Shown here: positions 23,763 to 52,705 of the stretch, piece by piece
Layout: every line of letters begins with the position of its first letter
Numbering within the stretch: the first letter of the stretch is position 1
Origin: Baylisascaris procyonis
Taxonomy: Eukaryota; Nematoda; Chromadorea; Rhabditida; Ascarididae
Direction of reading: 5' to 3'
Length of the DNA: 64,000 bases
Assembly (NCBI GenBank): GCA_037389465.1
Contig: JAZARR010000074.1
Location: 5,188,501-5,252,500, forward strand
Notes under the pieces: model-generated
What the model saw: the letters and a program-made list of their open reading frames with translations, nothing else
Database searches by the model: none
Told to the model about the DNA's origin: nothing
Translations under genes and position numbers: made by a program

Positions 23763-24647
23763 GTAAGTACTTTTAGAAGTGAGAGGCTATTTCTTGAAGA
23801 GCTTATCTTGTTTTCTTTGAGAAGTGTACTTTACTTGTTCTGAGGGGATCGAGAACGTGGCTTACGACGATGAATCGAGTGCAACGTTGCAAACAGATCG
23901 TTCTCTTTCATGAAATGTTTTTCTTAATAAGTGAGACCAAACTCACTTAGTTTATTTCCAATAAATCTCTGGTAAGGGTCGACAAAAGTTTCTGAAAATC
24001 TATGTTTTTGATTAGAACTCAATTTAACTGGAACTGTCAAGTCCAGAGGAAACGAGATTGTGGTTGAGACTGAAGCAGTTTTGAATGATGTTGGCTTCAG
24101 ATGGAGAAACACCTCGGTTGGAAGCTTACGATTTCGAAATGTCTGAACATGTTACATGTCAGGAATTTAGATTCCTCTAAGGGTTCAATTACTTATGCTA
24201 ACTATGATAATGACGACTGATTAGTGAAGCATACGTACGGAGAGCGAGTGTCATCGAAGATACGATCAATATTCTCAAATCCCTATCGTGTTTTCACTTC
24301 GCTTGCTGCTCTATCCTGTCCGCCTATCCTTATGTTTTTCCACGTTTCATACCAATCATCTCACGTCTTACTGTAGTGTATCGTAATACATCTTATCATA
24401 TGCGTTAGTCAGTAAGCGAATGGAACGATTTGATCAACAAAGTCATATAATGTGAAAATTCAAGGAATTTTATGGAAAATGCCCATAGAAGTGGTCCTTC
24501 TTTTTCGAGAGAAGTAACACTCTTCTCGATTGTTGCGGTAGTGGTCGACCAACTTTACAATTAGTAAACATACAGATATTTTTTAATGTGTCGCAGTTAC
24601 AGCCTCGGTTCCAAATGACGCTCTTTTTTTCGTTTTATCACGCGCAG

Positions 24648-24826
24648 TGGAGTTGTCAATTGCGCGGCGTTTTATGACCTATGACCTGAGAAGAAGCCCG
24701 CGATTATCGATTAAATGCTTGGCAAGCAAGAAGAGCAGCATGGTCGCCTCTGGCATGTTTCCATGCGTTTTGAGTCGCGCGGCGGTCCGCTGCGTTTGTT
24801 TTTTTTTAAGATTTACGTCTTTACAA
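24648..24826 (+). CDS. Candidate exon near the outer edge of the left arm
   Basis: The acceptor gttttatcacgcgcag is followed by an open phase-1 frame of 59 codons to a GTAAGA donor. The stretch is distinctly GC-richer than its flanks. A second frame starting at the ATG at 24715 also reads well (EEQHGRLWHVSMRFESRGG). In the right arm the corresponding T run has eight instead of nine T, so neither frame survives there. Either one copy is broken or a homopolymer error separates them. Confidence 0.28.
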
Positions 24827-25706
24827 GTAAGAAGTTATGCTGTATTAGTTTGATTTTTGTCGGTTTTCTTGGGATTCATTATATCCGAAGCAATACAGTT
24901 TTTGTTTGTGTTGTATTCTCAAGTAGGGATTAGGAAGGAAACAGTTGTAAACTGCCACTTCGTTGATGGTGAATTTTAGCTTGCAATAGGGGAGCGTGAG
25001 TTTTATGCTGAAGCAAAGAGGCTTTTAATTATTTTTTTCGATATTTCATTCAACCAACAATGTTAAAAAATTTTTTTGAAAGAATGTTACGGTCATCTTA
25101 AGTGATTGAATTATATGGTGATGAAATCTCCTCGTTGATTGAACAGTTGTGAAAGATGAAATGATTGTTATGAATTTGTTCGAAGATGAAACCAATCTTA
25201 TAATGTCTTTATGAACCGTCTATATTTTTGTCTTTGTCGGTGCTCGCTTTCTTTGCCTTTCCTGTCGGGAAACTTTTGTCTGAGGTGAACTGCACCTCTA
25301 GAAAACAATGCTATTTATTTTTATTTACTTGTTGTCTTTTATTGGCTCCGTGATTATGTATCATTCACTTTATTGAAATTCGACGGAGTGTAGTTTGCGA
25401 ATGTAGGTTATGTAAACGATTGATCTGTTTCACGTTTGGTTCAGTTTGCTCACTGTTATTTTAATACGTCGATATCTGTCTCTCTTTGCCAAGGGATGAA
25501 GGCAGATATAGGACGACAAGAGAGCAAGCAGCAACAGAAACCTAAGTGTTTGAAGACCAGGATGACCTAGGATTGAAGAATGCTTTCAATGCTGCGCCTT
25601 GGTCTCCCATCCGAATATGTGGAAAGTTCGATGATGTGTAATTATGGACGTCGCTACTCACTCTGGCATGCCGTTGACCGGAAATATGAACACAGCATGA
25701 AGCGTT

Positions 25707-26000
25707 ATGTCCACGCAGTTCTGCAGGTGTGCCACGCAGATGGAGGAGCATGGGTTGGCCGACGAATGTGAACTAACGCCCAGAATTTCGAAGAAGGAAT
25801 CGACGAAGAAGAATCTGAATATGGGATTGACGGGAGACGAAGTGGTCGTTGAATCGAACCATAGAAGAATGGGTCGCGGCACTGACCAGTGGTCACGAAG
25901 ACAGGATGGCCTCGGACCAGATAAGATGAGTCGATGCAGTGGTAACAGGCGAACAGTGACCGGCGTTGAAGACGATTACATCAACTGTGACGCAAGATGA
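25707..26000 (+). CDS. 97-codon ORF in left arm, unassigned
   Basis: ATG-initiated frame, GC-richer than the flanks, with a strongly charged, hydrophilic composition (ISKKESTKKNLNMGL, SNHRRMGRGTDQWSRRQ, GVEDDYINCDAR). Its translation is identical in the right arm (50860-51153, minus). An overlapping 63-codon frame (25580-25771) ends inside it. The DDYIN string recalls protein tyrosine phosphatases, but the other hallmarks of that family are absent, so I do not assign it. It may be an exon or a degenerate gene piece. Confidence 0.38.
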   Translation: MSTQFCRCATQMEEHGLADECELTPRISKKESTKKNLNMGLTGDEVVVESNHRRMGRGTDQWSRRQDGLGPDKMSRCSGNRRTVTGVEDDYINCDAR

Positions 26001-26519
26001 GTCGCTTAAAATTTTTCTTAGCAACTTTGGGGCCCGAATCGATATCATTTAATTCTCGTAGCTCCCCATTTCTTCTTAGGAAGCAAAGGATTTCACATTC
26101 TCAAAGTAGAATTCATCTTCTTTCCGTTATGCTCCCAAATCTTCCTGAGAAATTTGCAGTCTTACGGTGTTCACAGAGTTTATCGGGTGCATTTAAATTA
26201 ATCACACAAATCGGCATATGGATAGGGCAGCTGACAAGATTGGTGGCGTTTGATTTTTCTCTTCCGTACTAGATAATGGGAAGTTTTTTCGATGTTGTGG
26301 TGGGTATTTTCGCATGGTTTTTTTGTGCTGAAAGTTTTTTTTTTTGGTTTGGTTCAAAATAGTTCACGTAATTTTCTAGAAATTTGAAAAGATTTACCAC
26401 TAATTCACCGACCATGAAAAGGAAGCCAATTCTATCAACTGCCGTATGCGTATGCCGATATTCGTGATTAATGTAAATCAGTTGAACTCTATGATTTCTG
26501 TAAGACTGCATTGTTGGTC

Positions 26520-28800
26520 TTGGCAGATTAGTAAATGAAAATGCTGAGTGTGAAAATTAGCTGAATCCAGCTACATTTGAGCACGTCAGATCGCTCTTCC
26601 CAAGGATAGACATTCTTGCTTTGCTTAGGTGAATTTGAATTACTGTGGATCCATTCATCTTTTACGTATACCCCACCCTGTTATGGCACCGTTCAAGCTC
26701 AGAGGCGTGCCAATCGTGCAAAGAAGGGCACCTTTCAACACTCATTTTTTAATAGAGATGCACGTATTGTAATACGTTCAGCCACATTTTGCGCTACTTC
26801 GATGGCTTGAATTCGTTGAGATAATGAACTTGCATTGTGATGTGACCAAAAGTGTGCAGTAGGAATTATATATGAATCAAAAATACCTGCAGTGGATGGT
26901 CGCTTGTGACATTAAACAGATTTGTGACATGATTCTTTAGGTTTTTCTTTGCTCCAGCTGAGCCGTCGAATATCTCATTGAAGAAAAACGAACAAATTTT
27001 TGTAGGAAGTATTATTCCACGAAATCCTTCGCTATCATTTTTGAAAAAAAACTGGTGGAATTAAACTTGGTAAAGATAGGTTTCATTGTTTTTCTGTAGA
27101 TAGCGCCGCTATAGTCGGAGCGTAAAAAAAGCGGAGGACCTCCTGAAAAGGTAGTTCGTTCTTACGCAGCCCCGTGACCGATAAATTTGTGGCGCAATAA
27201 CATTCGTATTGTGGGCCAGGATATTTCTGGTTTGAAATTGTAATATTTCAATCCTAAAATAGACTGGAAAAATCACAGTGCGAACAGTTACGAAGTTGAA
27301 TCTCATACTGTTCCGCTTTTAACTTGTTGACTAATAATTCAGTTAATAGAAATAGAAACATTCATTTTACTTTGCATAGTATAGCGCAAAATTTCTTCAG
27401 TGAACCAATGGGTGGGGGATTTATGTGCGCTTTATTTTCTTTTTTCTGCTGTGTGTACGTTGCTGGAGAGTTGTATACAGGTGCAGCTGTAAGTTTATTT
27501 CTTCACACCCTATAGCTGTGATGGGGTAGCCTTCCTAATTGATTTATTTTTTTGCCTATACATATTCTGCGTGATAATTTTTGGCAGTCGATAAATTGCT
27601 CTGATTGAGCTTCTCTACGGTGTCCTCAAAGCCGCTGAAAAGGAGGCATTGGGCGAAGATGCCAGCTCCTTAGCGGTGACCTGTGGAGATTCCAATTCAC
27701 CGTTGAAGGAGACATTGGCCGCGACGCCAAGTCTTCAACTCTTCAACGGTTGCCTATAATGACTCCATTATGCTGTTGAAGACGAGTCATTAAGGCCACG
27801 CCATCACTCTACCGAGGGTCAGTGACCCGGTTGAGATGTTGAAAGGGAGTCATTGGGCGATAATGCCAGCTCCTTAATGATGGCCACTAAATTGTGCTCC
27901 ACAGGTGTCCTCCTGAGGACTATTCTATATTGAGGAGGTATGAAGACTTACAGCTGCACACTTCAACATTTGATTCGTCATTCAATTGTGTGAAAAAAAA
28001 GAAAATACGGCGCAGAGAAGGGGTTTGAAATCGCAGATGGTGCTGAATTATTGCAATATGAGGTCATTAAGTGATTTCCATAGTCATTCTGGATCGTTCA
28101 CGGAACAGATGGGTGTATGAATTATAAATGCAAATAAAATCTCGACACGAAATATTGATGAGTAGGTAGAAGGGGTGAGTACGTTGTTAGTAATCACCCC
28201 GGAGCTTCGAATTTGTAGCTGTTCGTATTATGATTTTTTAGACTAAGTAAGGGGTGAAAAGTTGCTATTTCAAGCCCAAAATATTCTCACACATAATATG
28301 AATGTTATTGCGCCATAAACTTATCGGGCACGGGGTCGCCTCAATGAGATATTCGATGCTTAGCTGGAATAAATTAGAACTGAATATATACATTAAAGAT
28401 CTGTTTGACATGCCAACAACCACCACTGCAAAGTGTTTTCGTTTCATGTTTCATTGTTATTGTTCATTTTCCTTGCATCACAATGCACACTTCATTTGTC
28501 TCTTCCATTCCATGCCATCGTGGTTGTGCAAATTGTGGCGGACATACTGCAAAACGTGCATCCTATTACTTAATGAGTCTTGAAGAGTTTCTTCGCTTTG
28601 CACGATTGGTGGGTTCCTCTGTGCTTCAGTGGTGCCATCATGGTGAAGTGTATGTGAGAGGTGTATGCGCAGTAGTTCATATTCATCTAAGTATTGCAAG
28701 AATGCCATTGTCCTCCAGTAAGAGCGATTTAGTGTGCTATGTAGTTGGATTGAGTGTAATTTTCACGTTCATCATTCTCGTTACATTGTGCCAAACCTTT
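26520..28800. repeat. Nested diverged inverted repeat in left arm
   Basis: The segment 26520-27302 matches the reverse complement of 28207-28800 at roughly 70% by eye. Anchors include gtgaaaatta...atcca(g/a)ctacat, caatcgtgcaaag and gcgcaataacattc(g/a)tat. The first copy carries an extra block of about 210 bp after ctcattga. The ~900-bp middle holds the block at 27.6-27.9 kb. The arrangement resembles a foldback or long-TIR DNA element of about 2.3 kb, but no transposase is seen. A further short inverted match pairs 26150-26260 with 26430-26520. Confidence 0.7.
27600..27925. repeat. GC-rich block with repeated GAGTCATTGGGCGA motif
   Basis: A motif of the form cattgggcga(a/t)(g/a)atgccagctcctta occurs at about 27648 and again at about 27855, with weaker echoes between (gagacattggccgcgacgcc, gacgagtcattaaggccacg). 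The block is GC-richer than its surroundings and sits in the middle of the nested inverted repeat. Its mirror lies at about 48935-49260. Confidence 0.6.
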
Positions 28801-28941
28801 TTTGGGGCCTTTGAGGGAAATGGCGGTGAGGAATTTGTTTCTACTTTGAACCGTTTAACTGTCCCAGTGGTGAAGGGGGTTGGAATTTCAAGATTCTTAT
28901 TTTATTTCGACTGCTTGAAATTTTTGTTCACTGAGCGATAA
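28405..28941 (+). other. 178-codon open frame over repeat sequence
   Basis: This is the second-longest frame in the window, with hydrophobic stretches (VCYVVGLSVIFTFIILVTLC). It overlaps one half of the nested inverted repeat. The right-arm copy (47919-48455) differs at five residues (L/P, L/F, T/I, A/V, G/E), all non-synonymous, and the diverged repeat partner does not keep the frame. I read it as a chance frame in repeat DNA. Confidence 0.2.
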
Positions 28942-30340
28942 AAAAATGAGAAGCTTTTCAAGTTTGAAAACCTTTTGATGTTTTTATGAGCAAGAAACAA
29001 TTTGAAGTTTTGATTTTTGCTTTGTGAGGAAAACTTATTGGTTTAATTCTAACGTAGCCTTTCAATCGTACCTCCGAGTTCAAGCACTACAGTGTGCGAA
29101 ATTTTTGGGCATGGCGTCATGGTTTGCAGCTTAGTTGGTTATGGTGCAAAATTGCGCTTTTATCGCTAATCGTGCTCTAATTTTCCAGTGATGTATCGAG
29201 TGCTTTTTGTTCGCCGCAGCTTATGACGATGAGTAATGGATAAGGTGATCGCCGAACTGTTTAAATTTTTCGACAGATCGACACGTTCTCAGTTCTGTGC
29301 AGTCGGAGGTTGGCACTTGTTTTATCACCACCGAGCTTTCGATGATCGTCATCGAGGTGGTTTCATTCTATTCAGTATGTGCTCCTTATTTATTGTGGGA
29401 AAGGGCAGGGTTGGGTTGAAAGATGGAAGGACTTATTTATAAGAGTTGAAACGTGGATGCCGTTTACGCTTCATGAGATACATTCCAGCAGATTTTGATT
29501 CTCACAAAAATTTCCATCACCAAATTTTGGAGGGCGGATAGTCAAGCGATATCTGTAACTTTCTGAAATTTTCTCGAAAGCTTATAGTCGACGAATAAGT
29601 TTTAGATATCCTTCTTCGATATGTGAAAGTAGTAACTGTCGCGAGTATGCGGATATCGTGCTTGAAGTGATTTCTGACGTTCAAAGAAGGAAGTGAGACG
29701 ACTTGTGGCGATTCTCATCTTCGTGGGAAGCTACTGCCAGAGTTTTACGCTGGTCTGTTTACATCTTTCTTTGACAAAATGTTTCATATCTGTGATTTGA
29801 AGTGACAGAAGAGTAGCGGACACTGAAAAAAAATTTGCAGAGTTTAGTCCTTGCAGCATTTTATTAGGCAGAAATTTTTTGTTTTAGCCTGAAGGCGAAT
29901 GCTATTCTATATCACTCAATTATTTCGTAAATTGTCATATTAGGCGAGCAAGTTTCTCATTAGCAAAGCGAGCTTTGGGACTGAAAGTTTGTCTAAGTGC
30001 GGTTCCATTCCCTTGGGGCCACTAGTTTACAGCTTCATTCGTCTTAAATTCTAACTTCCGAGTTCACTTTTGTTTGGTTATCACTTGATGGAAGGTTCAT
30101 TGTTTACAATGAATTTGAATGGAAACAAAAAATGTAGAAAGAATCGAGGTAATAGAGATTTAGTTCTTAGTTCATTTATTTCGTTGTTATTTTGAGAGTG
30201 AAATTCAAGGGCGCGATTGCCATTTTTCGCTAAAGGGTGAGCTCAGAGCAGCCCATATTTTCGAATCCACTTCTATACCTCAGAATATACAAAATTTCTT
30301 TCTATCTGGAATATGAAAAAAATATTCTACGCAATTTCAG

Positions 30341-31842
30341 AGCAACGAATTCACTGATGATCGCAATGACGAAACACCCGAAGAAGGGAGCAATGGTAAA
30401 AAAGCGGTGGAATATGACGAATCGAACGGACTTCGATGGAAAGAGGTTTGATCTTATTTAGTGCTAGAAAGAGTTTATTGACTGCTTCTTTTTGCTCTTA
30501 ACTGAGAGTATAAGCTTTACATATAAAGTCGCATGTGAAATTTAAACAAGGTTAGAAACTTTGGTAATGAGTTGATAACATAACATGCTTTGTCCAAACG
30601 ATGAACGTTTTTGATAACATATTTGCCTAAATAAGGCATATTTGCAATTGGAGGATGCTTATGAAATATTTTCTTGGGTTGAAGGCTTTTTTATATTACC
30701 TTTCTCATAAAAAATTTACCTTGTATACGATAAGCAGAGTTTAATAGAGGAGGGAATTTAGAGAGGTTACATTTGAACCGTGAATATTTCACCTACGTTT
30801 TTTCGCTTATCACAGAATAAACCTAAGTGAGAGGCGGCTCTTGTAATTTCGATTCTATTATTTTGATTAGCATTTGGCACAATTTGTGAAGGCCTTGTTT
30901 ATTTCTATATTGGGATCAGCTAGTGCGGTTGTAGCGTGTGATACAGTATAAAAATTGCATAGCCATTGCAAATACAATTTACAGACCATTCGATTAGAGT
31001 GCACTTCACGTTGATCGTTAAATGGTAAATAGATGCCCGTATCGACTGTAGTAAATGAGCTTGTTTTCTTCGTTTCAGTGCTGAACATAATTCAAACGTA
31101 ATATTTTTTGTTTCATAGATTGTCACTAAGTTGGCTTGAACAAATTATTTCGGTTATACTAACTGTTTGAGTTGAGACATTTTAAATGATTTGTGTTGTG
31201 GTGGATAACATTTCCACCACTTAATGACTTTATTTTACTGCAGGTACCAGAGCTTTGTCAATGGGCAGTTTTGGTTACCGAACATACGTCATTAGTGGAG
31301 GTAAGAATTTTTAAATTCTTCTAAAATGTCCCTCTCCTTATACAAGGGAAATTTATTCGTTGTTCGAGGCAGACGAGCTGAAGAAAATCATTCTCAATGA
31401 TGATGAAAAAGTGTCTTTAAATTTTTTCTGTAGCAGTGAGATGATATGAAAACAACTTTCTTGAACTACATTTTTCATAGAAAATTGTACCTTTCCCACC
31501 TGTTATTTTTCATTTTCTACGGAAAGCAGTACGTAGCATATCTCTAAGTTTCTATTGGGGAAATTTGGATGTGGTAGATTGAGTGATGTAGTTAATCCGA
31601 GGTTGGTCGAACCTTACCGACTCTTATAGGCTGAAATGAACTAGGATTTGAATGTTTCGCATAAAAAAAAATATATCGCAGAAATTACGGAAGGATTTTC
31701 GTTCGCACATGCGTAAATTTTTCCACGTTTATTGAATGCTTTCCTTTGCTGTTCAAAGCTGACCTTGTTGTTGAATGCATTCTCAAATGCTTTCTGTGTG
31801 CTATTCATCGAGTGTTTGCAGGATAACGAGAGTACGGACTAG
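30341..31842 (+). CDS. Spliced acidic protein C-terminus, left-arm copy
   Basis: Three exons, all joined at phase 0. Exon 30341-30445 lies between gcaatttcag and GTTTGA, 31244-31300 between tattttactgcag and GTAAGA, and 31822-31842 follows gtgtttgcag and ends in TAG. The peptide is hydrophilic and acidic at first (FTDDRNDETPEEGSNGKK, VEYDESNGLRWKE), then VPELCQWAVLVTEHTSLVE, ending DNESTD. Upstream exons were not resolved; possible ones are 29188 onward (DVSSAFCSPQLMTM, after aattttccag) and the GC-rich ORFs at 24.6-26.0 kb. No domain recognised. Transcription points toward the palindrome centre, so the two copies are convergent. Confidence 0.55.
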
Positions 31843-32149
31843 TTGCTAGTATAATGAAATCAAGCGAAAGGAGCGGCCAGACGGTGTTGTCGGAGTGCTA
31901 TATGGATACACGGGTCTACTGAATATCCAGAGAATGAAGTGATGATAGCTTACCGGTTTATATTGATGTATTTTGTATTTTTTATGAGACATATATCCGC
32001 ATTTTGTGGTTCTGTGTAATCTTCTTCATGGCTGTTGTTGTTGCTGTGCACGTTGTTGTTTCATTTCTGTTGTAATTGCTGTTATGCCTTGTGTTTCGCC
32101 ACTCTCGGTATTTTAACCGGGGATTTCACTAATGAATTTAGCGGGAGCT

Positions 32150-34520
32150 GATTCCAAGTCCGAGTAGATGAACCGAGAGTGGCGCCGGTTAAAGATTTGC
32201 CTACGTCGTGCTCACACTGAATGAGGCCAGTTGAAACAGCAGGCCACGGTCGTTTCCAGCGAACAAGGGAATTTGCATCGGTCGTTTAAAGATCGCATAG
32301 GCGTGTCTTGGGGTCTACGGATTGGTGAGAATTGCGGCTGTAGGGAGTTTTGTAGCCTGCATATCTGAAATCGGTTTGTCGGTGCTCTGCGTCAGCCGGT
32401 AGACTGCAACGATTTCTTCCGGCTAACGTAGGCTGCATTTTTTTGCTGTTCTTTGAGGCAATGTGGAGCTGTGACGTTCGGGTCCTCAGTATGGTCGGAT
32501 GGTGCCGCTATTTCCAGCTGCGAAGTAGCCGGACGCAGTAGGGAGTTCTGTAGCTTACATATCTGAAATCAGTTTGTCGGTGGTCTGCGTCAGCCGGGCA
32601 GACGGTGATGATTTCTTCCGGCTGACGTAGGCTGCATTTTATTGTCGTTCGTTGAGGCAATGTCGGGGTTGTGACGTTCGGGTTCCGAGTATGGTCGGAA
32701 GGTTGCCGCTATATTCTAGCTGCGAAGTAGCCGGATGCAGTAGGGAGTTCTGTAGCTTACGTATCTGAAATCAGTTTGTCGGTGGTCTGCGTCAGCCGGG
32801 CAGACGGTGATGATTTCTTCCGGCTGACATAGGCTGCATTTTATTGTGCTGCATTTTATTGTCGTTCGTTGAGGCAATGTCGGGGTTGTGACGTTCGGGT
32901 TCCGAGTATGGTCGGAAGGTTGCCGCTATATTCTAGCTGCGAAGTAGCCGGATGCAGTAGGGAGTTCTGTAGCTTACGTATCTGAAATCAGTTTGTCGGT
33001 GGTCTGCGTCAGCCGGTAGACTGCAATGATTTCTTCCGGCTAACGTAGGCTGCATTTTTTTGCCGTCCCTTGAGGCAATGTGGGGGCTGTGACGTTCGGG
33101 TCCTGAGTATGGTCGGACGGTTGCCGCTATATTCTAGCTGCGAAGTAGCCCGATGCAGTAGGGAGTTCTGTAGCTCACATATCTGAAATCAGTTTGTCGG
33201 TGGTCTGCGTCAGCCGGTAGACTGCAATGATTTCTTCCGGCTAACGTAGGCTGCATTTTTTTGCCGTCCCTTGAGGCAATGTGTGGGCTGTGACGTTCGG
33301 CTCCTGAGTATGGTCGGACGGTTGCCGCCATTTTCTACCTGCGAAGTAGCCGGATGCAGTAGGGTCTTTGATGTGGCCAGAGCCGTGGCGCTTGAACTTG
33401 ATTTCTGAAGTAGTTCGGAGAGGTTCCATATGTTGCGCGAGTTTGACCTACCAGCGAAGCGTTTTAGCTGCGTTCATGAGCTGGTAGGTGTGTCTGTTTA
33501 TGTATTGATGGTGTCTGGCATCGTGTCCAATGAACAAGGGAATCTGCGTCGGTCCCATAAAGAGCGCACAGGTGCGTCTGGCGCTGTACTGGTTGCTGAG
33601 GGTTGCGGCTGTAGGAAGTTATGTACTCCCGTGTCGCACATCAGTTGGTCCTTTGTGTGCGTCAGCTGGGTAGATCTGTAATGTGATTTCTTCCGGCTAA
33701 CGTACGCTGCATTTTCTGCCGTTGGTTGAGGCAGTGTGGGGAAGTGTCACGTTTGGGTTTTGAGTACGGTTGGGCAGTTGCCGCTATTTTCTGGCTGCGA
33801 AGTAGCCGGGTCCAGTGGGGTCTTTGGTTTAGCTTGAGCCGTGTCCCTCGAATTTGATTTCTGAAGTAGTTCGGAGATCGGCGACTTCATGCGTGGCGGG
33901 CGTTTGACCTACCACCGATCAAACGTTGTGTGGAGTTCATGGGCTGGTACCGTGTGTCTATCTGTGCGTTGACGGTGTTTGGCGCCGTGTCCAGCGAACG
34001 AGGGAGTCTGCGTCGGTCCTTGCAGCCGCAGGGAATTTTGTAGCTGGCGTATCTCGGATCAGTTTGTCGGGCGGTCTGCGTCAGCTGGGTTGATCTGTAA
34101 TGTGACATCTTCCGGCTAACGTAGGTTGCATTTTTTTTACCGTTCTTTGAGGCAATGTGGAGCTGTGACGTTCGGGTCCTGAGTATGGTCGGACGGTGCC
34201 GCTATTTCCAGCTGCGAAGTAGCCGGATGCAGTGGGCCTTTGGTGTGGCTTGAGACGTGGCGCTTCAATTTGGTTTCTGAAGTAGTTCGGAGAGGTTTCA
34301 TGTGTTGCGCGCGTTTGACCTGCTAGCGAAGCGTTTTAGCGGCGTTCATGGGCTGGTAGGTGTGTCTGTCTATGAGTTGATCGTGTATGGCATTGCGTCC
34401 AGCGAACAAGGGAATCCGCGTGGGTCCCATAAAGAGCGCAGATCAGTTGGTCGGTGGTGTGCGTCGTTGGGCAGATGCATAATGTGATTTCTTCCGGCTA
34501 ACGAAGGTTATGTCGATTTT
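32150..34520. repeat. GC-rich tandem repeat array, left arm
   Basis: A minisatellite-like array in sequence visibly richer in GC than the rest of the arm. The marker GTAGGGAGTTCTGTAGC recurs at 32538, 32740, 32957 and 33158, and the related GTAGGGTCTTTG at 33360, giving a unit of about 201 bp. One unit is lengthened by a 15-bp internal duplication. From 33360 the units become longer (about 415-450 bp) by adding a segment with cttgaacttgatttctgaag and a GAACAAGGGAATCTGCG box. Each unit contains TTCCGGCTAACGTAGGCTGC and TGAGGCAATGTG. The ORFs over the array are repeat artefacts. Confidence 0.9.
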
Positions 34521-34606
34521 TAATGCATGGTGGCGCTATTATGTTTCCCAACGATAGTTATATAACTCGGCTTCTGTTGGCCTCTTTTAATTGCTTATCG
34601 GTAATC

Positions 34607-36690: not shown

Positions 36691-36748
36691 CCACCCCATT
36701 TGCGCGCCTGAGTAGCCAAAACCTTAAGAATGTGCGCTATGGGTTGCG

Positions 36749-37057: not shown

Positions 37058-37127
37058 GTCTAGAACAGTAGGGATGATATTCGAATATTCTTCTTCAGAT
37101 TATGCAAGAAATTTTGCTTCTTTATAG

Positions 37128-38822: not shown

Positions 38823-38837
38823 AATGATGAGCATAAG

Positions 38838-40003: not shown

Positions 40004-40105
40004 CTTAACATTCAATATTTTTCAAGTCAATATTGTCGCTTCCTAACCTAAAACCCAAAATTTCGGGTCCACTTGAGTTCAATTTTTTTTTTACTTTTTC
40101 CTCAG

Positions 40106-40555: not shown

Positions 40556-42050
40556 TCTATGGGAGGGATGGATCGAAATGTAGTCTAGAAGAAAGGTACA
40601 TTGTGTAAAATAAAATTTCTATGAGAGAAATAATCCGTCTTAAAAAGATTTTATCTGACACCCCGATCGATGCTTTTGAAATGCATTCGGTCTTAAGCAA
40701 CTTTCGACTATCAATGAAACATCAGAAACGTCAGCGGTCTATTCGCAAGTGAAAAAAATTTCGATCGTTTACCACCGCTAGATACTATCTAATCCAGAGA
40801 AGGATAGAACTAGAACTTTTTATTCGAATAATTCTTGTTGTTGTATAATTTATAGAATCGTCACAACCATGGCTTGTGGTGGCTGAAACGACTGTTTCAT
40901 TTTGCCCTTTTTATACTAACGTCGTGCTCAAATATTTTGCCTTCGCGGGTGTTGGCGAGTGCAACTTTTTGCATTGGAGATATTGACTTCAGTTCCGTCT
41001 AGTTTTTTCCAATCTATGCCTATGAACGATGCTACTGAGGAGAAAAGCTGCCTTACAACTACCTAATCAGGCAAATGCGTTCACATGGCGTTATTCCAAT
41101 TGAGAATTCCTTCGAGCAATAAATTCTCGAGTTTGCGGCGTCGTTTTATGCATATTTGCCAGTTTTGTTGGTTATTTTTTGTGAAAGATGGCTTCTTTGC
41201 ACTTTGGTACCTCTCATTCGCACTTTGGCATCTCTCATTCTCCTACCTGTGTATCTGACTCTTTATTTGTGCATATGATGGAACTAATTTTTATTAGCCG
41301 AGTTTGGTGGTAATTGAAATTAAAATGTGATTTAACCACCTGGTAACTGTTTCTTTTCATGTAACCTTCCTGATGTTGTCAGCTAACAAATGTGATAAAT
41401 GTAAAAAACTGAGAAAGTATGATGCTGCCATATGAAAACTAACAAAAAAGCTAATAATTGACGACAAAAGGCCCTGCGACAAACAAAGTCAGTGTTAGGT
41501 GGCCACTGTAATTTTCGAACTTTATGTGTTAGGAAGTAAGGACGGCATGCAAATTTTGCACCGCGTCGGTGTAAAATGGTCGACCTAGAAATGGTGAAGT
41601 GAAAACGTTTCGGTCATTACTTTCCAGTAAATTTGCATATCTTATTTCTGCAGCTGTTTTTTTCAAACATTCCCATCACTCACTCGCCGTCATTTGAGCA
41701 AGTGGTAGGTTTTGATGGTTGCCTCACTCTCTTTGTTAGCATTTGAACTGATCGTGGTTAGAATAGATAGAATATAGGACATTTGCAGTTTTAGTTAGGA
41801 TGTGGACGATAAGATAAATTTGCACTTACTTAAGCAGTAAAATTAGCCAATATTTTTTTCTAGCAGGTTGTGGATTAAAGTGAAAAAAATTGCATAGATG
41901 TTGTGATTGCAAAGGATCAATTTGAAATATGAAAGAAATGCTTGTTCATTTGTTCCTGGGAACTCATTTTGTAGATATTGTTGATGTTAAGTACATTAAT
42001 CTAGGTGGTGTTAAGAGTAGCTGCCATTTGCTTTTATTTTAGAATTAGCT

Positions 42051-42263
42051 ATGACGCAGATCTTTTTCACTGTCCGATTCATTCTACTTTTGGCACAACT
42101 AACTGCACTCTTCTTGCTCATCATAATCAATCGGTTATGCGGAGCAACGCCATTCCGAGAGGTCTGTGTATGGCCAGATGTTGCTTTTCTCTACTTATTC
42201 GATTTTGCATCTTATGCATGTATTGAATGCTCCATATTCATATCGACTAGCAATAGAGTATGA
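42051..42263 (+). CDS. Small ORF with hydrophobic N-terminus, right arm
   Basis: Mirror of 34607-34819, with the same acceptor, start and hydrophobic segments and one substitution near the C-terminus. Confidence 0.3.
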   Translation: MTQIFFTVRFILLLAQLTALFLLIIINRLCGATPFREVCVWPDVAFLYLFDFASYACIECSIFISTSNRV

Positions 42264-42349
42264 GATTACCGATAAGCAATTAAAAGAGGCCAACAGAAGC
42301 CGAGTTATATAACTATCGTTGGGAAACATAATAGCGCCACCATGCATTA

Positions 42350-44718
42350 AAAATCGACATAACCTTCGTTAGCCGGAAGAAATCACATTATGCATCTGCC
42401 CAACGACGCACACCACCGACCAACTGATCTGCGCTCTTTATGGGACCCACGCGGATTCCCTTGTTCGCTGGACGCAATGCCATACACGATCAACTCATAG
42501 ACAGACACACCTACCAGCCCATGAACGCCGCTAAAACGCTTCGCTAGCAGGTCAAACGCGCGCAACACATGAAACCTCTCCGAACTACTTCAGAAACCAA
42601 ATTGAAGCGCCACGTCTCAAGCCACACCAAAGGCCCACTGCATCCGGCTACTTCGCAGCTGGAAATAGCGGCACCGTCCGACCATACTCAGGACCCGAAC
42701 GTCACAGCTCCACATTGCCTCAAAGAACGGTAAAAAAAATGCAACCTACGTTAGCCGGAAGATGTCACATTACAGATCAACCCAGCTGACGCAGACCGCC
42801 CGACAAACTGATCCGAGATACGCCAGCTACAAAATTCCCTGCGGCTGCAAGGACCGACGCAGACTCCCTCGTTCGCTGGACACGGCGCCAAACACCGTCA
42901 ACGCACAGATAGACACACGGTACCAGCCCATGAACTCCACACAACGTTTGATCGGTGGTAGGTCAAACGCCCGCCACGCATGAAGTCGCCGATCTCCGAA
43001 CTACTTCAGAAATCAAATTCGAGGGACACGGCTCAAGCTAAACCAAAGACCCCACTGGATCCGGCTACTTCGCAGCCAGAAAATAGCGGCAACTGCCCAA
43101 CCATACTCAAAACCCAAACGTGACACTTCCCCACACTGCCTCAACCAACGGCAGAAAATGCAGCGTACGTTAGCCGGAAGAAATCACATTACAGATCTAC
43201 CCAGCTGACGCACACAAAGGACCAACTGATGTGCGACACGGGAGTACATAACTTCCTGCAGCCGCAACCCTCAGCAACCAGTACAGCGCCAGACGCACCT
43301 GTGCGCTCTTTATGGGACCGACGCAGATTCCCTTGTTCATTGGACACGATGCCATACACCATCAATACATAAACAGACACACCTACCAGCTCATGAACGC
43401 AGCTAAAACGCTTCGCTGGTAGGTCAAACTCGCGCAACATATGGAACCTCTCCGAACTACTTCAGAAATCAAGTTCAAGCGCCACGGCTCTGGCCACATC
43501 AAAGACCCTACTGCATCCGGCTACTTCGCAGGTAGAAAATGGCGGCAACCGTCCGACCATACTCAGGAGCCGAACGTCACAGCCCACACATTGCCTCAAG
43601 GGACGGCAAAAAAATGCAGCCTACGTTAGCCGGAAGAAATCATTGCAGTCTACCGGCTGACGCAGACCACCGACAAACTGATTTCAGATATGTGAGCTAC
43701 AGAACTCCCTACTGCATCGGGCTACTTCGCAGCTAGAATATAGCGGCAACCGTCCGACCATACTCAGGACCCGAACGTCACAGCCCCCACATTGCCTCAA
43801 GGGACGGCAAAAAAATGCAGCCTACGTTAGCCGGAAGAAATCATTGCAGTCTACCGGCTGACGCAGACCACCGACAAACTGATTTCAGATACGTAAGCTA
43901 CAGAACTCCCTACTGCATCCGGCTACTTCGCAGCTAGAATATAGCGGCAACCTTCCGACCATACTCGGAACCCGAACGTCACAACCCCGACATTGCCTCA
44001 ACGAACGACAATAAAATGCAGCCTATGTCAGCCGGAAGAAATCATCACCGTCTGCCCGGCTGACGCAGACCACCGACAAACTGATTTCAGATACGTAAGC
44101 TACAGAACTCCCTACTGCATCCGGCTACTTCGCAGCTAGAATATAGCGGCAACCTTCCGACCATACTCGGAACCCGAACGTCACAACCCCGACATTGCCT
44201 CAACGAACGACAATAAAATGCAGCCTACGTCAGCCGGAAGAAATCATCACCGTCTGCCCGGCTGACGCAGACCACCGACAAACTGATTTCAGATATGTAA
44301 GCTACAGAACTCCCTACTGCGTCCGGCTACTTCGCAGCTGGAAATAGCGGCACCATCCGACCATACTGAGGACCCGAACGTCACAGCTCCACATTGCCTC
44401 AAAGAACAGCAAAAAAATGCAGCCTACGTTAGCCGGAAGAAATCGTTGCAGTCTACCGGCTGACGCAGAGCACCGACAAACCGATTTCAGATATGCAGGC
44501 TACAAAACTCCCTACAGCCGCAATTCTCACCAATCCGTAGACCCCAAGACACGCCTATGCGATCTTTAAACGACCGATGCAAATTCCCTTGTTCGCTGGA
44601 AACGACCGTGGCCTGCTGTTTCAACTGGCCTCATTCAGTGTGAGCACGACGTAGGCAAATCTTTAACCGGCGCCACTCTCGGTTCATCTACTCGGACTTG
44701 GAATCAGCTCCCGCTAAA
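42350..44718. repeat. GC-rich tandem repeat array, right arm
   Basis: Mirror of the left array with the same number and order of units, including the unit that carries the 15-bp duplication. Only scattered substitutions separate the two. Keeping copy number equal in such an array argues for very recent duplication or active homogenisation. Confidence 0.9.
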
Positions 44719-45012
44719 TTCATTAGTGAAATCCCCGGTTAAAATACCGAGAGTGGCGAAACACAAGGCATAACAGCAATTACAACAGAAATGAAACAAC
44801 AACGTGCACAGCAACAACAACAGCCATGAAGAAGATTACACAGAACCACAAAATGCGGATATATGTCTCATAAAAAATACAAAATACATCAATATAAACC
44901 GGTAAGCTATCATCACTTCATTCTCTGGATATTCAGTAGACCCGTGTATCCATATAGCACTCCGACAACACCGTCTGGCCGCTCCTTTCGCTTGATTTCA
45001 TTATACTAGCAA

Positions 45013-46514
45013 CTAGTCCGTACTCTCGTTATCCTGCAAACACTCGATGAATAGCACACAGAAAGCATTTGAGAATGCATTCAACAACAAGGTCAGCTTT
45101 GAACAGCAAAGGAAAGCATTCAATAAACGTGGAAAAATTTACGCATGTGCGAACGAAAATCCTTCCGTAATTTCTGCGATATATTTTTTTTTATGCGAAA
45201 CATTCAAATCCTAGTTCATTTCAGCCTATAAGAGTCGGTAAGGTTCGACCAACCTCGGATTAACTACATCACTCAATCTACCACATCCAAATTTCCCCAA
45301 TAGAAACTTAGAGATATGCTACGTACTGCTTTCCGTAGAAAATGAAAAATAACAGGTGGGAAAGGTACAATTTTCTATGAAAAATGTAGTTCAAGAAAGT
45401 TGTTTTCATATCATCTCACTGCTACAGAAAAAATTTAAAGACACTTTTTCATCATCATTGAGAATGATTTTCTTCAGCTCGTCTGCCTCGAACAACGAAT
45501 AAATTTCCCTTGTATAAGGAGAGGGACATTTTAGAAGAATTTAAAAATTCTTACCTCCACTAATGACGTATGTTCGGTAACCAAAACTGCCCATTGACAA
45601 AGCTCTGGTACCTGCAGTAAAATAAAGTCATTAAGTGGTGGAAATGTTATCCACCACAACACAAATCATTTAAAATGTCTCAACTCAAACAGTTAGTATA
45701 ACCGAAATAATTTGTTCAAGCCAACTTAGTGACAATCTATGAAACAAAAAATATTACGTTTGAATTATGTTCAGCACTGAAACGAAGAAAACAAGCTCAT
45801 TTACTACAGTCGATACGGGCATCTATTTACCATTTAACGATCAACGTGAAGTGCACTCTAATCGAATGGTCTGTAAATTGTATTTGCAATGGCTATGCAA
45901 TTTTTATACTGTATCACACGCTACAACCGCACTAGCTGATCCCAATATAGAAATAAACAAGGCCTTCACAAATTGTGCCAAATGCTAATCAAAATAATAG
46001 AATCGAAATTACAAGAGCCGCCTCTCACTTAGGTTTATTCTGTGATAAGCGAAAAAACGTAGGTGAAATATTCACGGTTCAAATGTAACCTCTCTAAATT
46101 CCCTCCTCTATTAAACTCTGCTTATCGTATACAAGGTAAATTTTTTATGAGAAAGGTAATATAAAAAAGCCTTCAACCCAAGAAAATATTTCATAAGCAT
46201 CCTCCAATTGCAAATATGCCTTATTTAGGCAAATATGTTATCAAAAACGTTCATCGTTTGGACAAAGCATGTTATGTTATCAACTCATTACCAAAGTTTC
46301 TAACCTTGTTTAAATTTCACATGCGACTTTATATGTAAAGCTTATACTCTCAGTTAAGAGCAAAAAGAAGCAGTCAATAAACTCTTTCTAGCACTAAATA
46401 AGATCAAACCTCTTTCCATCGAAGTCCGTTCGATTCGTCATATTCCACCGCTTTTTTACCATTGCTCCCTTCTTCGGGTGTTTCGTCATTGCGATCATCA
46501 GTGAATTCGTTGCT
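45013..46514 (-). CDS. Spliced acidic protein C-terminus, right-arm copy
   Basis: Exact mirror of the left-arm gene: exons 46410-46514, 45555-45611 and 45013-45033 on the minus strand. All splice sites, frames and the stop are kept, so both copies could be expressed. The exons match the left arm with no change that I can see. Confidence 0.55.
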
Positions 46515-48059
46515 CTGAAATTGCGTAGAATATTTTTTTCATATTCCAGATAGAAAGAAATTTTGTATATTCTGAGGTATAGAAGTGGATTCGAAAATAT
46601 GGGCTGCTCTGAGCTCACCCTTTAGCGAAAAATGGCAATCGCGCCCTTGAATTTCACTCTCAAAATAACAACGAAATAAATGAACTAAGAACTAAATCTC
46701 TATTACCTCGATTCTTTCTACATTTTTTGTTTCCATTCAAATTCATTGTAAACAATGAACCTTCCATCAAGTGATAACCAAACAAAAGTGAACTCGGAAG
46801 TTAGAATTTAAGACGAATGAAGCTGTAAACTAGTGGCTCCAAGGGAATGGAACCGCACTTAGACAAACTTTCAGTCCCAAAGCTCGCTTTGCTAATGAGA
46901 AACTTGCTCGCCTAATATGACAATTTACGAAATAATTGAGTGATATAGAATAGCATTCGCCTTCAGGCTAAAACAAAAAATTTCTGCCTAATAAAATGCT
47001 GCAAGGACTAAACTCTGCAAATTTTTTTTCAGTGTCCGCTACTCTTCTGTCACTTCAAATCACAGATATGAAACATTTTGTCAAAGAAAGATGTAAACAG
47101 ACCAGCGTAAAACTCTGGCAGTAGCTTCCCACGAAGATGAGAATCGCCACAAGTCGTCTCACTTCCTTCTTTGAACGTCAGAAATCACTTCAAGCACGAT
47201 ATCCGCATACTCGCGACAGTTACCACTTTCACATATCGAAGAAGGATATCTAAAACTTATTCGTCGACTATAAGCTTTCGAGAAAATTTCAGAAAGTTAC
47301 AGATATCGCTTGACTATCCGCCCTCCAAAATTTGGTGATGGAAATTTTTGTGAGAATCAAAATCTGCTGGAATGTATCTCATGAAGCGTAAACGGCATCC
47401 ACGTTTCAACTCTTATAAATAAGTCCTTCCATCTTTCAACCCAACCCTGCCCTTTCCCACAATAAATAAGGAGCACATACTGAATAGAATGAAACCACCT
47501 CGATGACGATCATCGAAAGCTCGGTGGTGATAAAACAAGTGCCAACCTCCGACTGCACAGAACTGAGAACGTGTCGATCTGTCGAAAAATTTAAACAGTT
47601 CGGCGATCACCTTATCCATTACTCATCGTCATAAGCTGCGGCGAACAAAAAGCACTCGATACATCACTGGAAAATTAGAGCACGATTAGCGATAAAAGCG
47701 CAATTTTGCACCATAACCAACTAAGCTGCAAACCATGACGCCATGCCCAAAAATTTCGCACACTGTAGTGCTTGAACTTGGAGGTTTTGTACGATTGAAA
47801 GGCTACGTTAGAATTAAACCAATAAGTTTTCCTCACAAAGCAAAAATCAAAACTTCAAATTGTTTCTTGCTCATAAAAACATCAAAAGGTTTTCAAACTT
47901 GAAAAGCTTCTTATTTTTTTATCGCTCAGTGAACAAAAATTTCAAGCAGTCGAAATAAAATAAGAATCTTGAAATTTCAACCCCCTTCACCACTGGGACA
48001 GTTAAACGGTTCAAAGTAGAAACAAATTCCTCACCGCCATTTCCCTCAAAGACCCCAAA

Positions 48060-50340
48060 AAAGGTTTGGCACAATATAACGAGAATGATGAACGTGAAAA
48101 TTACACTAAATCCAACTACATAACACACTAAATCGCTCTTACTGGAGGACAATGGCATTCTTGCAATACTTAGATGAATATGAACTACTGCGCATACACC
48201 TCTCACATACACTTCACCATGATGACACCACTGAGGCACAGAGGAACCCACCAATCGTGCAAAGCGAAGAAACTCTTCAAGACTCATTAAGTAATAGGAT
48301 GCACGTTTTGCAGTATGTCCGCCACAATTTGCACAACCACGATGGCATGGAATGGAAGAGACAAATGAAGTGTGCATTGTGATGCAAGGAAAATGAACAA
48401 TAACAATGAAACATGAAACGAAAACACTCTGCAGTGGTGGTTGTTGGCATGTCAAACAGATCTTTAATGTATATATTCAGTTCTAATTTATTCCAGCTAA
48501 GCATCGAATATCTCATTGGGGCGACCCCGTGCCCTATAAGTTTGTGGCGCAATAACATTCATATTATGTGTGAGAATATTTTGGGCTTGAAATAGCAACT
48601 TTTCACCCCTTACTTAGTCTAAAAAATCATAATACGAACAGCTACAAATTCGAAGCTCCAGGGTGATTACTAACAACGTACTCACCCCTTCTACCTACTC
48701 ATCAATATTTTGTGTCGAGATTTTATTTGCATTTATAATTCATACACCCATCTGTTCCGTGAACGATCCAGAATGACTATGGAAATCACTTAATGACCTC
48801 ATATTGCAATAATTCAGCACCATCTGCGATTTCAAACCCCTTCTCTGCGCCGTATTTTCTTTTTTTTCACACAATTGAATGACGAATCAAATGTTGAAGT
48901 GTGCAGCTGTAAGTCTTCATACCTCCTCAATATAGAATAGTCCTCAGGAGGACACCTGTGGAGCACAATTTAGTGGCCATCATTAAGGAGCTGGCATTAC
49001 CGCCCAATGACTCCCTTTCAACATCTCAACCGGGTCACTGACCCTCGGTAGAGTGATGGCGTGGCCTTAATGACTCGTCTTCAACAGCATAATGGAGTCA
49101 TTATAGGCAACCGTTGAAGAGTTGAAGACTTGGCGTCGCGGCCAATGTCTCCTTCAACGGTGAATTGGAATCTCCACAGGTCACCGCTAAGGAGCTGGCA
49201 TCTTCGCCCAATGACTCCTTTTCAGCGGCTTTGAGGACACCGTAGAGAAGCTCAATCAGAGCAATTTATCGACTGCCAAAAATTATCACGCAGAATATGT
49301 ATAGGCAAAAAAATAAATCAATTAGGAAGGCTACCCCATCACAGCTATAGGGTGTGAAGAAATAAACTTACAGCTGCACCTGTATACAACTCTCCAGCAA
49401 CGTACACACAGCAGAAAAAAGAAAATAAAGCGCACATAAATCCCCCACCCATTGGTTCACTGAAGAAATTTTGCGCTATACTATGCAAAGTAAAATGAAT
49501 GTTTCTATTTCTATTAACTGAATTATTAGTCAACAAGTTAAAAGCGGAACAGTATGAGATTCAACTTCGTAACTGTTCGCACTGTGATTTTTCCAGTCTA
49601 TTTTAGGATTGAAATATTACAATTTCAAACCAGAAATATCCTGGCCCACAATACGAATGTTATTGCGCCACAAATTTATCGGTCACGGGGCTGCGTAAGA
49701 ACGAACTACCTTTTCAGGAGGTCCTCCGCTTTTTTTACGCTCCGACTATAGCGGCGCTATCTACAGAAAAACAATGAAACCTATCTTTACCAAGTTTAAT
49801 TCCACCAGTTTTTTTTCAAAAATGATAGCGAAGGATTTCGTGGAATAATACTTCCTACAAAAATTTGTTCGTTTTTCTTCAATGAGATATTCGACGGCTC
49901 AGCTGGAGCAAAGAAAAACCTAAAGAATCATGTCACAAATCTGTTTAATGTCACAAGCGACCATCCACTGCAGGTATTTTTGATTCATATATAATTCCTA
50001 CTGCACACTTTTGGTCACATCACAATGCAAGTTCATTATCTCAACGAATTCAAGCCATCGAAGTAGCGCAAAATGTGGCTGAACGTATTACAATACGTGC
50101 ATCTCTATTAAAAAATGAGTGTTGAAAGGTGCCCTTCTTTGCACGATTGGCACGCCTCTGAGCTTGAACGGTGCCATAACAGGGTGGGGTATACGTAAAA
50201 GATGAATGGATCCACAGTAATTCAAATTCACCTAAGCAAAGCAAGAATGTCTATCCTTGGGAAGAGCGATCTGACGTGCTCAAATGTAGCTGAATTCAGC
50301 TAATTTTCACACTCAGCATTTTCATTTACTAATCTGCCAA
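48060..50340. repeat. Nested diverged inverted repeat in right arm
   Basis: Mirror of 26520-28800: outer copies at about 48060-48653 and 49558-50340. The insertion of about 210 bp is present in the equivalent copy, so it predates duplication of the arms or was spread by conversion. Confidence 0.7.
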
Positions 50341-50859
50341 GACCAACAATGCAGTCTTACAGAAATCATAGAGTTCAACTGATTTACATTAATCACGAAT
50401 ATCGGCATACGCATACGGCAGTTGATAGAATTGGCTTCCTTTTCATGGTCGGTGAATTAGTGGTAAATCTTTTCAAATTTCTAGAAAATTACGTGAACTA
50501 TTTTGAACCAAACCAAAAAAAAAAACTTTCAGCACAAAAAAACCATGCGAAAATACCCACCACAACATCGAAAAAACTTCCCATTATCTAGTACGGAAGA
50601 GAAAAATCAAACGCCACCAATCTTGTCAGCTGCCCTATCCATATGCCGATTTGTGTGATTAATTTAAATGCACCCGATAAACTCTGTGAACACCGTAAGA
50701 CTGCAAATTTCTCAGGAAGATTTGGGAGCATAACGGAAAGAAGATGAATTCTACTTTGAGAATGTGAAATCCTTTGCTTCCTAAGAAGAAATGGGGAGCT
50801 ACGAGAATTAAATGATATCGATTCGGGCCCCAAAGTTGCTAAGAAAAATTTTAAGCGAC

Positions 50860-51153
50860 TCATCTTGCGTCACAGTTGATGTAATCGTCTTCAACGCCGG
50901 TCACTGTTCGCCTGTTACCACTGCATCGACTCATCTTATCTGGTCCGAGGCCATCCTGTCTTCGTGACCACTGGTCAGTGCCGCGACCCATTCTTCTATG
51001 GTTCGATTCAACGACCACTTCGTCTCCCGTCAATCCCATATTCAGATTCTTCTTCGTCGATTCCTTCTTCGAAATTCTGGGCGTTAGTTCACATTCGTCG
51101 GCCAACCCATGCTCCTCCATCTGCGTGGCACACCTGCAGAACTGCGTGGACAT
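50860..51153 (-). CDS. 97-codon ORF in right arm, copy of 25707-26000
   Basis: Mirror copy with an identical predicted peptide. It is transcribed toward the spacer, as is its left-arm twin. Perfect conservation here does not prove selection, because the arms around it are also nearly identical. Confidence 0.38.
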   Translation of the reverse strand: MSTQFCRCATQMEEHGLADECELTPRISKKESTKKNLNMGLTGDEVVVESNHRRMGRGTDQWSRRQDGLGPDKMSRCSGNRRTVTGVEDDYINCDAR

Positions 51154-52705
51154 AACGCTTCATGCTGTGTTCATATTTCCGGTCAACGGCATGCCAGAGT
51201 GAGTAGCGACGTCCATAATTACACATCATCGAACTTTCCACATATTCGGATGGGAGACCAAGGCGCAGCATTGAAAGCATTCTTCAATCCTAGGTCATCC
51301 TGGTCTTCAAACACTTAGGTTTCTGTTGCTGCTTGCTCTCTTGTCGTCCTATATCTGCCTTCATCCCTTGGCAAAGAGAGACAGATATCGACGTATTAAA
51401 ATAACAGTGAGCAAACTGAACCAAACGTGAAACAGATCAATCGTTTACATAACCTACATTCGCAAACTACACTCCGTCGAATTTCAATAAAGTGAATGAT
51501 ACATAATCACGGAGCCAATAAAAGACAACAAGTAAATAAAAATAAATAGCATTGTTTTCTAGAGGTGCAGTTCACCTCAGACAAAAGTTTCCCGACAGGA
51601 AAGGCAAAGAAAGCGAGCACCGACAAAGACAAAAATATAGACGGTTCATAAAGACATTATAAGATTGGTTTCATCTTCGAACAAATTCATAACAATCATT
51701 TCATCTTTCACAACTGTTCAATCAACGAGGAGATTTCATCACCATATAATTCAATCACTTAAGATGACCGTAACATTCTTTCAAAAAAATTTTTTAACAT
51801 TGTTGGTTGAATGAAATATCGAAAAAAATAATTAAAAGCCTCTTTGCTTCAGCATAAAACTCACGCTCCCCTATTGCAAGCTAAAATTCACCATCAACGA
51901 AGTGGCAGTTTACAACTGTTTCCTTCCTAATCCCTACTTGAGAATACAACACAAACAAAAACTGTATTGCTTCGGATATAATGAATCCCAAGAAAACCGA
52001 CAAAAATCAAACTAATACAGCATAACTTCTTACTTGTAAAGACGTAAATCTTAAAAAAAACAAACGCAGCGGACCGCCGCGCGACTCAAAACGCATGGAA
52101 ACATGCCAGAGGCGACCATGCTGCTCTTCTTGCTTGCCAAGCATTTAATCGATAATCGCGGGCTTCTTCTCAGGTCATAGGTCATAAAACGCCGCGCAAT
52201 TGACAACTCCACTGCGCGTGATAAAACGAAAAAAAGAGCGTCATTTGGAACCGAGGCTGTAACTGCGACACATTAAAAAATATCTGTATGTTTACTAATT
52301 GTAAAGTTGGTCGACCACTACCGCAACAATCGAGAAGAGTGTTACTTCTCTCGAAAAAGAAGGACCACTTCTATGGGCATTTTCCATAAAATTCCTTGAA
52401 TTTTCACATTATATGACTTTGTTGATCAAATCGTTCCATTCGCTTACTGACTAACGCATATGATAAGATGTATTACGATACACTACAGTAAGACGTGAGA
52501 TGATTGGTATGAAACGTGGAAAAACATAAGGATAGGCGGACAGGATAGAGCAGCAAGCGAAGTGAAAACACGATAGGATTTGAAAACATAGATCACTATT
52601 ATTTTCTGTTCTTTTTTTTCTAATGGGTGATTAATTTCTTTTCAAATAAAAAAAAATCAATTTTTCATTCAAAAAAATGTTTACAAGGTATTGCGATCTG
52701 TCCAG

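What the first reader, a model, noticed from the sequence alone, without database searches (positions are those of the whole stretch)
24276..52582. Giant near-perfect inverted repeat (two 11.8-kb arms, 4.76-kb spacer)
The sequence from 24276 to 36056 reappears as its reverse complement at 40816-52582, collinear throughout. It carries ORFs, splice sites, nested repeats and a tandem array in both arms. Such palindromes are known where arm-to-arm gene conversion keeps copies alike, for example on sex chromosomes, or arise by recent inverted duplication. The unique spacer and the scattered differences make a simple folded-read artefact less likely. No terminal transposase signature explains it.
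Basis: partly seen in the sequence, partly recalled or inferred. Interest (0 to 1): 0.85.

Follow-up and report, generated by a model that had tools for sequence, protein, structure and literature searches.

The report
Mirror-image DNA duplication in a roundworm
In the genome of a large parasitic roundworm, a 12-kilobase stretch lies next to its own near-identical mirror image; it belongs to a widely copied, apparently gene-free segment whose neighbouring copies seem to have swapped sequence with one another.

Summary
The inverted repeat is real: 24264-36056 matches 52594-40816 as reverse complement at 99.26%, spacer 4,759 bp. The genome is an ascaridid nematode's. The arm is one copy of a segmental-duplication family with at least 40 scored places, 32 of them on two contigs, seven in a 20-21-kb tandem array. 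A third copy 73 kb downstream forms a larger, more perfect palindrome with arm 2, running past the window's end. A second palindrome of the family lies 0.29 Mb away: arms 99.84% alike, 88-92% like these. Three neighbouring copies form a block mosaic: over 30,101-32,330 the two arms are identical while the third copy differs by about 2%; elsewhere other pairs match (7 switches at 106 sites against 68.5 in shuffles). That points to non-allelic exchange, probably gene conversion. I found no known protein domain, no long ORF intact in diverged copies and no consistent splice-signal conservation. Junctions look like end-joining. Known kind: ampliconic palindrome. Sex linkage, expression and read support are untested.

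The parts
24264..36056 (+). Arm 1 (copy c1 of unit A)
   Evidence: BLASTN self-match 99.263% to 52594-40816; 41 match rows in the genome for its first 1,001 bases
36057..40815 (.). Spacer S; repeated beside the third copy c3; its first part holds a dispersed tandem-type repeat
   Evidence: 99.66% to c3 over 4,755 bp; 36100-38100 has 118 match rows, mostly to about 36422-36810; 38800-40811 occurs at only 2 places
40816..52594 (-). Arm 2 (copy c2 of unit A, inverted)
   Evidence: inverted match to c3 as well
52595..64000 (-). Segment B, the continuation of arm 2 in the larger c2/c3 palindrome; also next to A in other family copies
   Evidence: 44110-64000 matches C74:5294214-5274314 inverted, 99.47%; 11 match rows for 52600-54600; order B'-A in C74:4.11 Mb and C211:2.10 Mb
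32340..33364 (+). 201-bp tandem array in arm 1 (5.0 copies)
   Evidence: unit has 80 match rows in the genome
43506..44515 (-). 201-bp tandem array in arm 2 (5.0 copies)
26534..28782 (.). Nested diverged inverted pair in arm 1 (26534-26981 / 28341-28782)
   Evidence: 71% over 458 columns; its middle occurs at 40 scored near-full-length places
48078..50326 (.). The same nested inverted pair in arm 2
40806..40822 (.). Junction spacer/arm 2 with a short duplicated filler; c1-c3 homology ends here
52590..52600 (.). Junction A/B shared by c2 and c3: about 1.6 kb missing relative to two other copies, 3-bp shared GAT

Best explanation
A young cluster of inverted and direct copies of an amplified, apparently non-coding segment (order B'-A-S) in an ascaridid nematode. 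Shown: three copies within about 90 kb, c1 (A-S), c2 (inverted A, then B) and c3 (B'-A-S); non-homologous junctions; a block mosaic of identity among the three. Inferred: a unit that had lost 1.6 kb at the B/A border was duplicated in inverted orientation (c2/c3 palindrome); end-joining with loss of DNA then put the older copy c1 with its S next to c2 and made the 11.8-kb palindrome; because the copies lie close together, non-allelic recombination (probably gene conversion; one switch lies at or next to the tandem array) overwrote tracts and keeps the arms alike. I see no sign of a gene being maintained; the structure most likely persists as a by-product of recombination among amplicons.
For: Arms 99.26% alike. 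Family of at least 40 scored places, direct, inverted and in a tandem array. Third copy and larger palindrome. Mosaic: 7 switches among 106 sites, shuffled mean 68.5, 0 of 10,000 shuffles as low; without the array region 99 sites, 4 switches against 64.1. Arm-arm mismatches 23, 0 and 40 in 24264-30100, 30101-32330 and 33365-36056, against 22, 41 and 2 for c1-c3. Junction forms. A second palindrome of the family with 99.84% arms. No domains, diverged-copy ORFs or splice conservation.
Against: Conversion and crossing-over cannot be told apart, and switching between haplotypes in the assembly could also give a mosaic; places of near-equal score on small contigs (C19 with C195, C86 with C211) suggest that alternative haplotypes are present in this assembly. 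The three blocks are few, so few events are proven. Only 2 outgroup copies were used. An open 35-codon stretch at 30342-30447 in all 8 covering copies leaves a small coding exon possible.
Confidence: 0.7

Rival explanations
1. Recent inverted duplication without ongoing exchange: the arms are alike only because they are young, and the mosaic reflects a few older recombination events or the way c1 was first assembled from pieces of c2-like and c3-like copies.
For: c2 and c3 differ at only 11 sites from 46 to 63 kb, as a very recent duplication would; the mosaic has only three main blocks.
Against: Three different closest pairs along one arm, with 0 mismatches between arms over 2,230 bp where c3 differs at 41, need at least two exchanges between existing copies, so some exchange has happened whatever its present rate.
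Confidence: 0.13
2. Assembly artefact: a folded or chimeric read, or haplotype switching, produced the inverted repeat or its mosaic.
For: No reads could be examined; apparent alternative haplotypes of some family copies are in the assembly.
Against: A folded read would give arms without clustered private differences and an undefined spacer; here 63 mismatches lie in blocks, the spacer is repeated at c3, and a second palindrome of the family is on the same contig.
Confidence: 0.08
3. A functional palindrome: sex-linked or germline-expressed amplicon, kept for a transcript (coding or hairpin RNA).
For: G and T excess on one strand in A (skews 0.132 and 0.102) and B' (0.106 and 0.107) but not in spacer, DM gene or flanks, as transcribed DNA can show; acceptor-like motifs are kept somewhat above background (16 of 22 on the + strand); two palindromes of the family with the same orientation; a DM-domain gene 2.9 kb from arm 1.
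Against: Donor motifs are kept no better than background, acceptor-like motifs are also kept on the other strand (17 of 28); no domain or ORF intact in diverged copies; the DM gene is outside the repeat; sex linkage and expression unknown.
Confidence: 0.07
4. A large transposable element with giant inverted ends.
For: Dispersed copies; nested old inverted pair.
Against: No mobility domain in six frames; copies end at different points and were mostly found without an inverted partner close by (positions); no constant termini.
Confidence: 0.02

Closest known systems
Ampliconic palindromes of mammalian sex chromosomes with intrachromosomal gene conversion (review PMC3403216, passages seen)
   Same: Arms above 99% identity, a spacer, several amplicon copies nearby, signs of exchange between copies
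   Different: No gene found in the arms; a nematode; sex linkage unknown; the unit belongs to a dispersed family that is mostly not palindromic
Long near-perfect inverted repeats of Caenorhabditis, maintained across species (PMC1803023; abstract and part 1 of 2 of Results seen)
   Same: Nematode; arms more alike than divergence of other copies would suggest; active maintenance proposed there
   Different: There: gene pairs and intergenic arms of 124-160 bp in the two examples read; here: 11.8 kb (23 kb in the larger palindrome) without detected genes; cross-species comparison not done here
Segmental duplication / amplicon family
   Same: Copies of more than 10 kb, tandem and dispersed, variable ends, junctions like end-joining
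   Different: No difference found; the palindromes are local arrangements of such a family

Membership tests
Ampliconic palindrome with arm-to-arm exchange | Long inverted arms above 99% identity around a spacer | tested here: met
   99.263% over 11,798 columns, spacer 4,759 bp
Ampliconic palindrome with arm-to-arm exchange | Sequence exchange between arms | tested here: met
   Block mosaic with a third copy and outgroups; haplotype switching in the assembly not excluded
Ampliconic palindrome with arm-to-arm exchange | Genes in the arms, often testis-expressed (typical, not strictly defining) | tested here: not met
   No Pfam match over a cut-off, no long ORF intact in diverged copies; expression not tested
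Ampliconic palindrome with arm-to-arm exchange | Sex-chromosome location (typical) | not testable with these tools
Ampliconic palindrome with arm-to-arm exchange | Structure older than a species split, arms more alike within than between species | not testable with these tools
   No relative of this genome is held (stated)
Segmental duplication family | Copies above 1 kb and 90% identity at several places | tested here: met
Segmental duplication family | No mobility genes, variable ends | tested here: met
Transposable element with terminal inverted repeats | Transposase or other mobility domain | tested here: not met
   Six-frame Pfam scans of arm 1, spacer and B
Transposable element with terminal inverted repeats | Constant ends with target-site duplications | tested here: not met
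   Ends differ among the copies read; junctions are end-joining scars; target-site duplications as such not searched

The most novel reading that the evidence does not exclude
In this nematode one non-coding amplified segment repeatedly settles into palindromes with the array side inward (two found on one contig), kept alike by gene conversion and transcribed from one strand in the germline, so that read-through makes long hairpin RNA that feeds small-RNA silencing of the whole family: a palindrome kept for its RNA, not for a gene.
Probability: 0.05. Interest if true: 0.75.

Novelty: new member of a known kind. Interest (0 to 1): 0.36.

Why it matters
It documents palindromes with a conversion-like mosaic in an ascaridid nematode, a group known for programmed DNA elimination, in arms where no gene was found. 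If reads confirm it, arm homogenisation here needs no genic selection, only inverted copies close together, and two palindromes of one family on one contig give a natural system in which to measure conversion tracts.

Tried and rejected
Genes in the arms: six-frame Pfam scans of arm 1 plus spacer and of B gave nothing at or above a curated cut-off; listed below it were DUF3646 (E 0.11, arm), Gp54 (0.18, B) and EMC4 (0.04, B). A scan for AG-to-GT stretches with excess synonymous change gave short stretches on both strands (best z 5.2 on +, 5.9 on -), which I treated as noise. Two candidate exons were inspected in the copies that cover them: 30342-30447 is open in one frame in 8 of 8, 31244-31301 has a stop in 1 of 8. 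ORF table: the 185-aa ORF is broken in 5 of 9 other copies; a few shorter ORFs (for example 34610-34849 and 34647-34865 on the - strand) are intact in the 4 other copies that cover them, but those copies are close relatives, so this says little; insertions relative to c1 were not counted as frameshifts. Splice motifs: donors kept at 0.42-0.49 on + against a 5-mer background of 0.56; acceptor-like motifs 16 of 22 on + and 17 of 28 on - against 0.51 for exact 6-mers. RNA families and tRNAs: none in the window.

Transposon: rejected (see rivals). Species: COX1 places led to a mitochondrial contig; ND4 was used for the species question; not settled to species, and the protein library is clustered at 90%, so nearer species may hide in a cluster. 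Papers: searches (Ascaris/ascarid with palindrome, segmental duplication, inverted duplication; 8, 1 and 1 papers) listed, by title and start of abstract, no report of such palindromes in ascarids; this covers only the library held. One of three protein searches was not used.

The value meant for the best explanation is given now (0.7); interest and novel-case figures are unchanged. Mended on checking: the range of identity to other family members, the splice-motif result, the mismatch count of c2/c3 and the distance of the copies.

Full report
Observation. The window lies at C74:5188501-5252500 of a 272.8-Mb genome in 293 contigs. Self-BLASTN confirms one collinear inverted repeat, 24264-36056 against 52594-40816, 99.263% over 11,798 columns with 63 mismatches and 6 gap openings. 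Both arms carry a 201-bp tandem array of five copies and an old nested inverted pair.

Organism. A four-unit TTAGGC pattern occurs at 108,209 forward and 192,439 reverse places, the reversed control at none. The ORF 20443-21399 is 91% identical to an unnamed protein and, over 20% of its length, 94% to a DM-domain protein of Parascaris univalens. Mitochondrial ND4 is 94% identical to the Baylisascaris transfuga representative, 91% to Ascaris lumbricoides, 90% to Toxascaris leonina, 86% to Toxocara canis and 84% to Parascaris. This is an ascaridid nematode near Baylisascaris and Ascaris; species not settled.

A repeat family. The first 1,001 bases of the arm give 41 match rows (95 candidates, 40 scored: a lower bound). 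The stretch 27000-28300 gives 40 scored near-full-length places at 81-100%: 10 on C74, 22 on C211, 2 each on C86 and C32, 1 each on C78, C228, C19 and C195 (106 candidates, 40 scored). These include the three copies here; C19 and C195 (same score) and C86 and C211 (near-equal scores) may be alternative haplotypes. Seven matches at C211:1618089-1742285 follow at 20.2-21.0 kb. B (52600-54600) has 11 match rows, and in C74:4.11 Mb and C211:2.10 Mb it lies on the same side of A as in c2 and c3. The far spacer (38800-40811) occurs at 2 places only, here and beside c3.

Third copy and larger palindrome. C74:5285728-5301661 (c3) repeats 24264-40811 in direct orientation in two pieces, 98.67% and 99.66%. 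The stretch 44110-64000 reappears inverted at C74:5294214-5274314, 99.47%, and 40816-43916 continues it at 98.36%; from 46 to 63 kb there are 11 mismatches in all. So c2 and c3 form a larger palindrome with arms of at least 23 kb; its inner ends lie beyond the window and were not followed.

Mosaic. With copies at C74:3.98 and 4.11 Mb as outgroups (2 of the copies read), 106 substitution sites among c1, c2 and c3 fall into three main blocks: c2=c3 against c1 from 24,268 to 30,017 (22 of the 23 such sites, with one other-pattern site at 28737); c1=c2 against c3 from 30,842 to 32,330 (42 of 43); c1=c3 against c2 from 33,515 to 36,016 (39 of 40, with one site of each other pattern, 33810 and 34504). 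There are 7 switches; shuffles average 68.5 and none of 10,000 was as low. Without the array region: 99 sites, 4 switches, 64.1 on average. By BLASTN, c1-c2 has 23, 0 and 40 mismatches in 24264-30100, 30101-32330 and 33365-36056; c1-c3 has 22, 41 and 2, and 12 in the 4,755-bp spacer. Three different closest pairs along one arm cannot come from one duplication history; exchange between copies is needed, in the middle block between the two arms of the reported palindrome (or by replacement in c3 from a more distant copy, which would also be exchange). Conversion and crossing-over cannot be told apart, and haplotype switching is not excluded.

Junctions. In c2 and c3, B joins A through a 3-bp GAT present at both ends, with about 1.6 kb missing relative to the two other copies compared; c1 keeps the longer left end. 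Spacer and arm 2 are joined through a short duplicated filler, and c1-c3 homology stops there. These look like end-joining scars, not transposon ends. Inferred order: B/A deletion, inverted duplication giving c2/c3, deletion joining c1's spacer to c2, tract exchange.

Second palindrome. Family matches of near-equal score at C74:5530388(+) and 5570515(-) led to C74:5530017-5536200 and 5566013-5572200, reverse complements at 99.84% (4 mismatches, 3 gap openings, 6,189 columns) but 88-92% like the window's arms. The array side faces inward, as in c1/c2. Only 6.2 kb of each arm was read, so its extent is unknown. Inverted pairs of this family thus recur, each young or homogenised.

Content. No Pfam match at or above a cut-off in six frames of arm 1 plus spacer or of B; no Rfam or tRNA match in the window; the longest ORF is broken in 5 of 9 other copies. 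Splice motifs are not consistently kept: donors no better than background, acceptor-like motifs somewhat better on both strands. One short open stretch, 30342-30447, is open in 8 of 8 covering copies, so a small exon is not excluded. A and B are rich in G and T on the same strand while spacer, DM gene and flanks are near zero; this may reflect transcription and is otherwise unexplained.

Comparison. In kind this matches ampliconic palindromes with intrachromosomal conversion (PMC3403216, passages seen) and, in nematodes, the maintained inverted repeats of Caenorhabditis (PMC1803023, abstract and part 1 of 2 of Results seen). It differs in having no detected gene and in belonging to a dispersed family. 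A review of Ascaris programmed DNA elimination says that analysis of break regions, palindromes included, revealed no defining feature (PMC9894435, passages seen); no link to elimination was tested here. A review of nematode chromosomes mentioned in the passages shown only palindromes of other kinds (PMC9071541, 12 of 15 places shown). Searches listed no report of such palindromes in ascarids in the library held.

Verdict. Real, and richer than first described, but of a known kind; interest is modest unless reads, a sister species or RNA data show maintenance or function.

Noticed in passing
window 13625-21399 (+): A DM-domain (doublesex/mab-3-like) gene: six blocks match a Parascaris univalens DM-domain protein (75-98% identity) and a 319-codon C-terminal ORF matches an unnamed protein at 91%; it ends 2.9 kb before arm 1.
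   Followed up: partly
window 23313-23522 and 56274-56332: Long (TA)n runs, the first 0.7 kb outside arm 1; such runs can form hairpins and break (recalled), so a possible breakage site.
   Followed up: no
C211:1618089-1742285 (genome G000): Seven copies of the arm's family in a tandem array of 20.2-21.0-kb period.
   Followed up: partly
L035 and L036 (C74:5530001-5536200, 5566001-5572200): A second palindrome of the same family, arms 99.84% alike over the 6.2 kb read.
   Followed up: partly
C198:591851-653739 (genome G000): Three COX1-like stretches with many stops at a 30.5-kb period: probably nuclear copies of mitochondrial DNA within a tandem duplication; other COX1-like places on C219, C80, C81 and C221.
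   Followed up: no
window 24264-36056 and 52595-64000: Strand asymmetry: G and T excess on the same strand in A and B', absent from spacer and flanks.
   Followed up: partly
window 36422-36810: Part of the spacer is a repeat of about 160-210 bp found in tandem at many places on C74, C82, C151 and other contigs.
   Followed up: no
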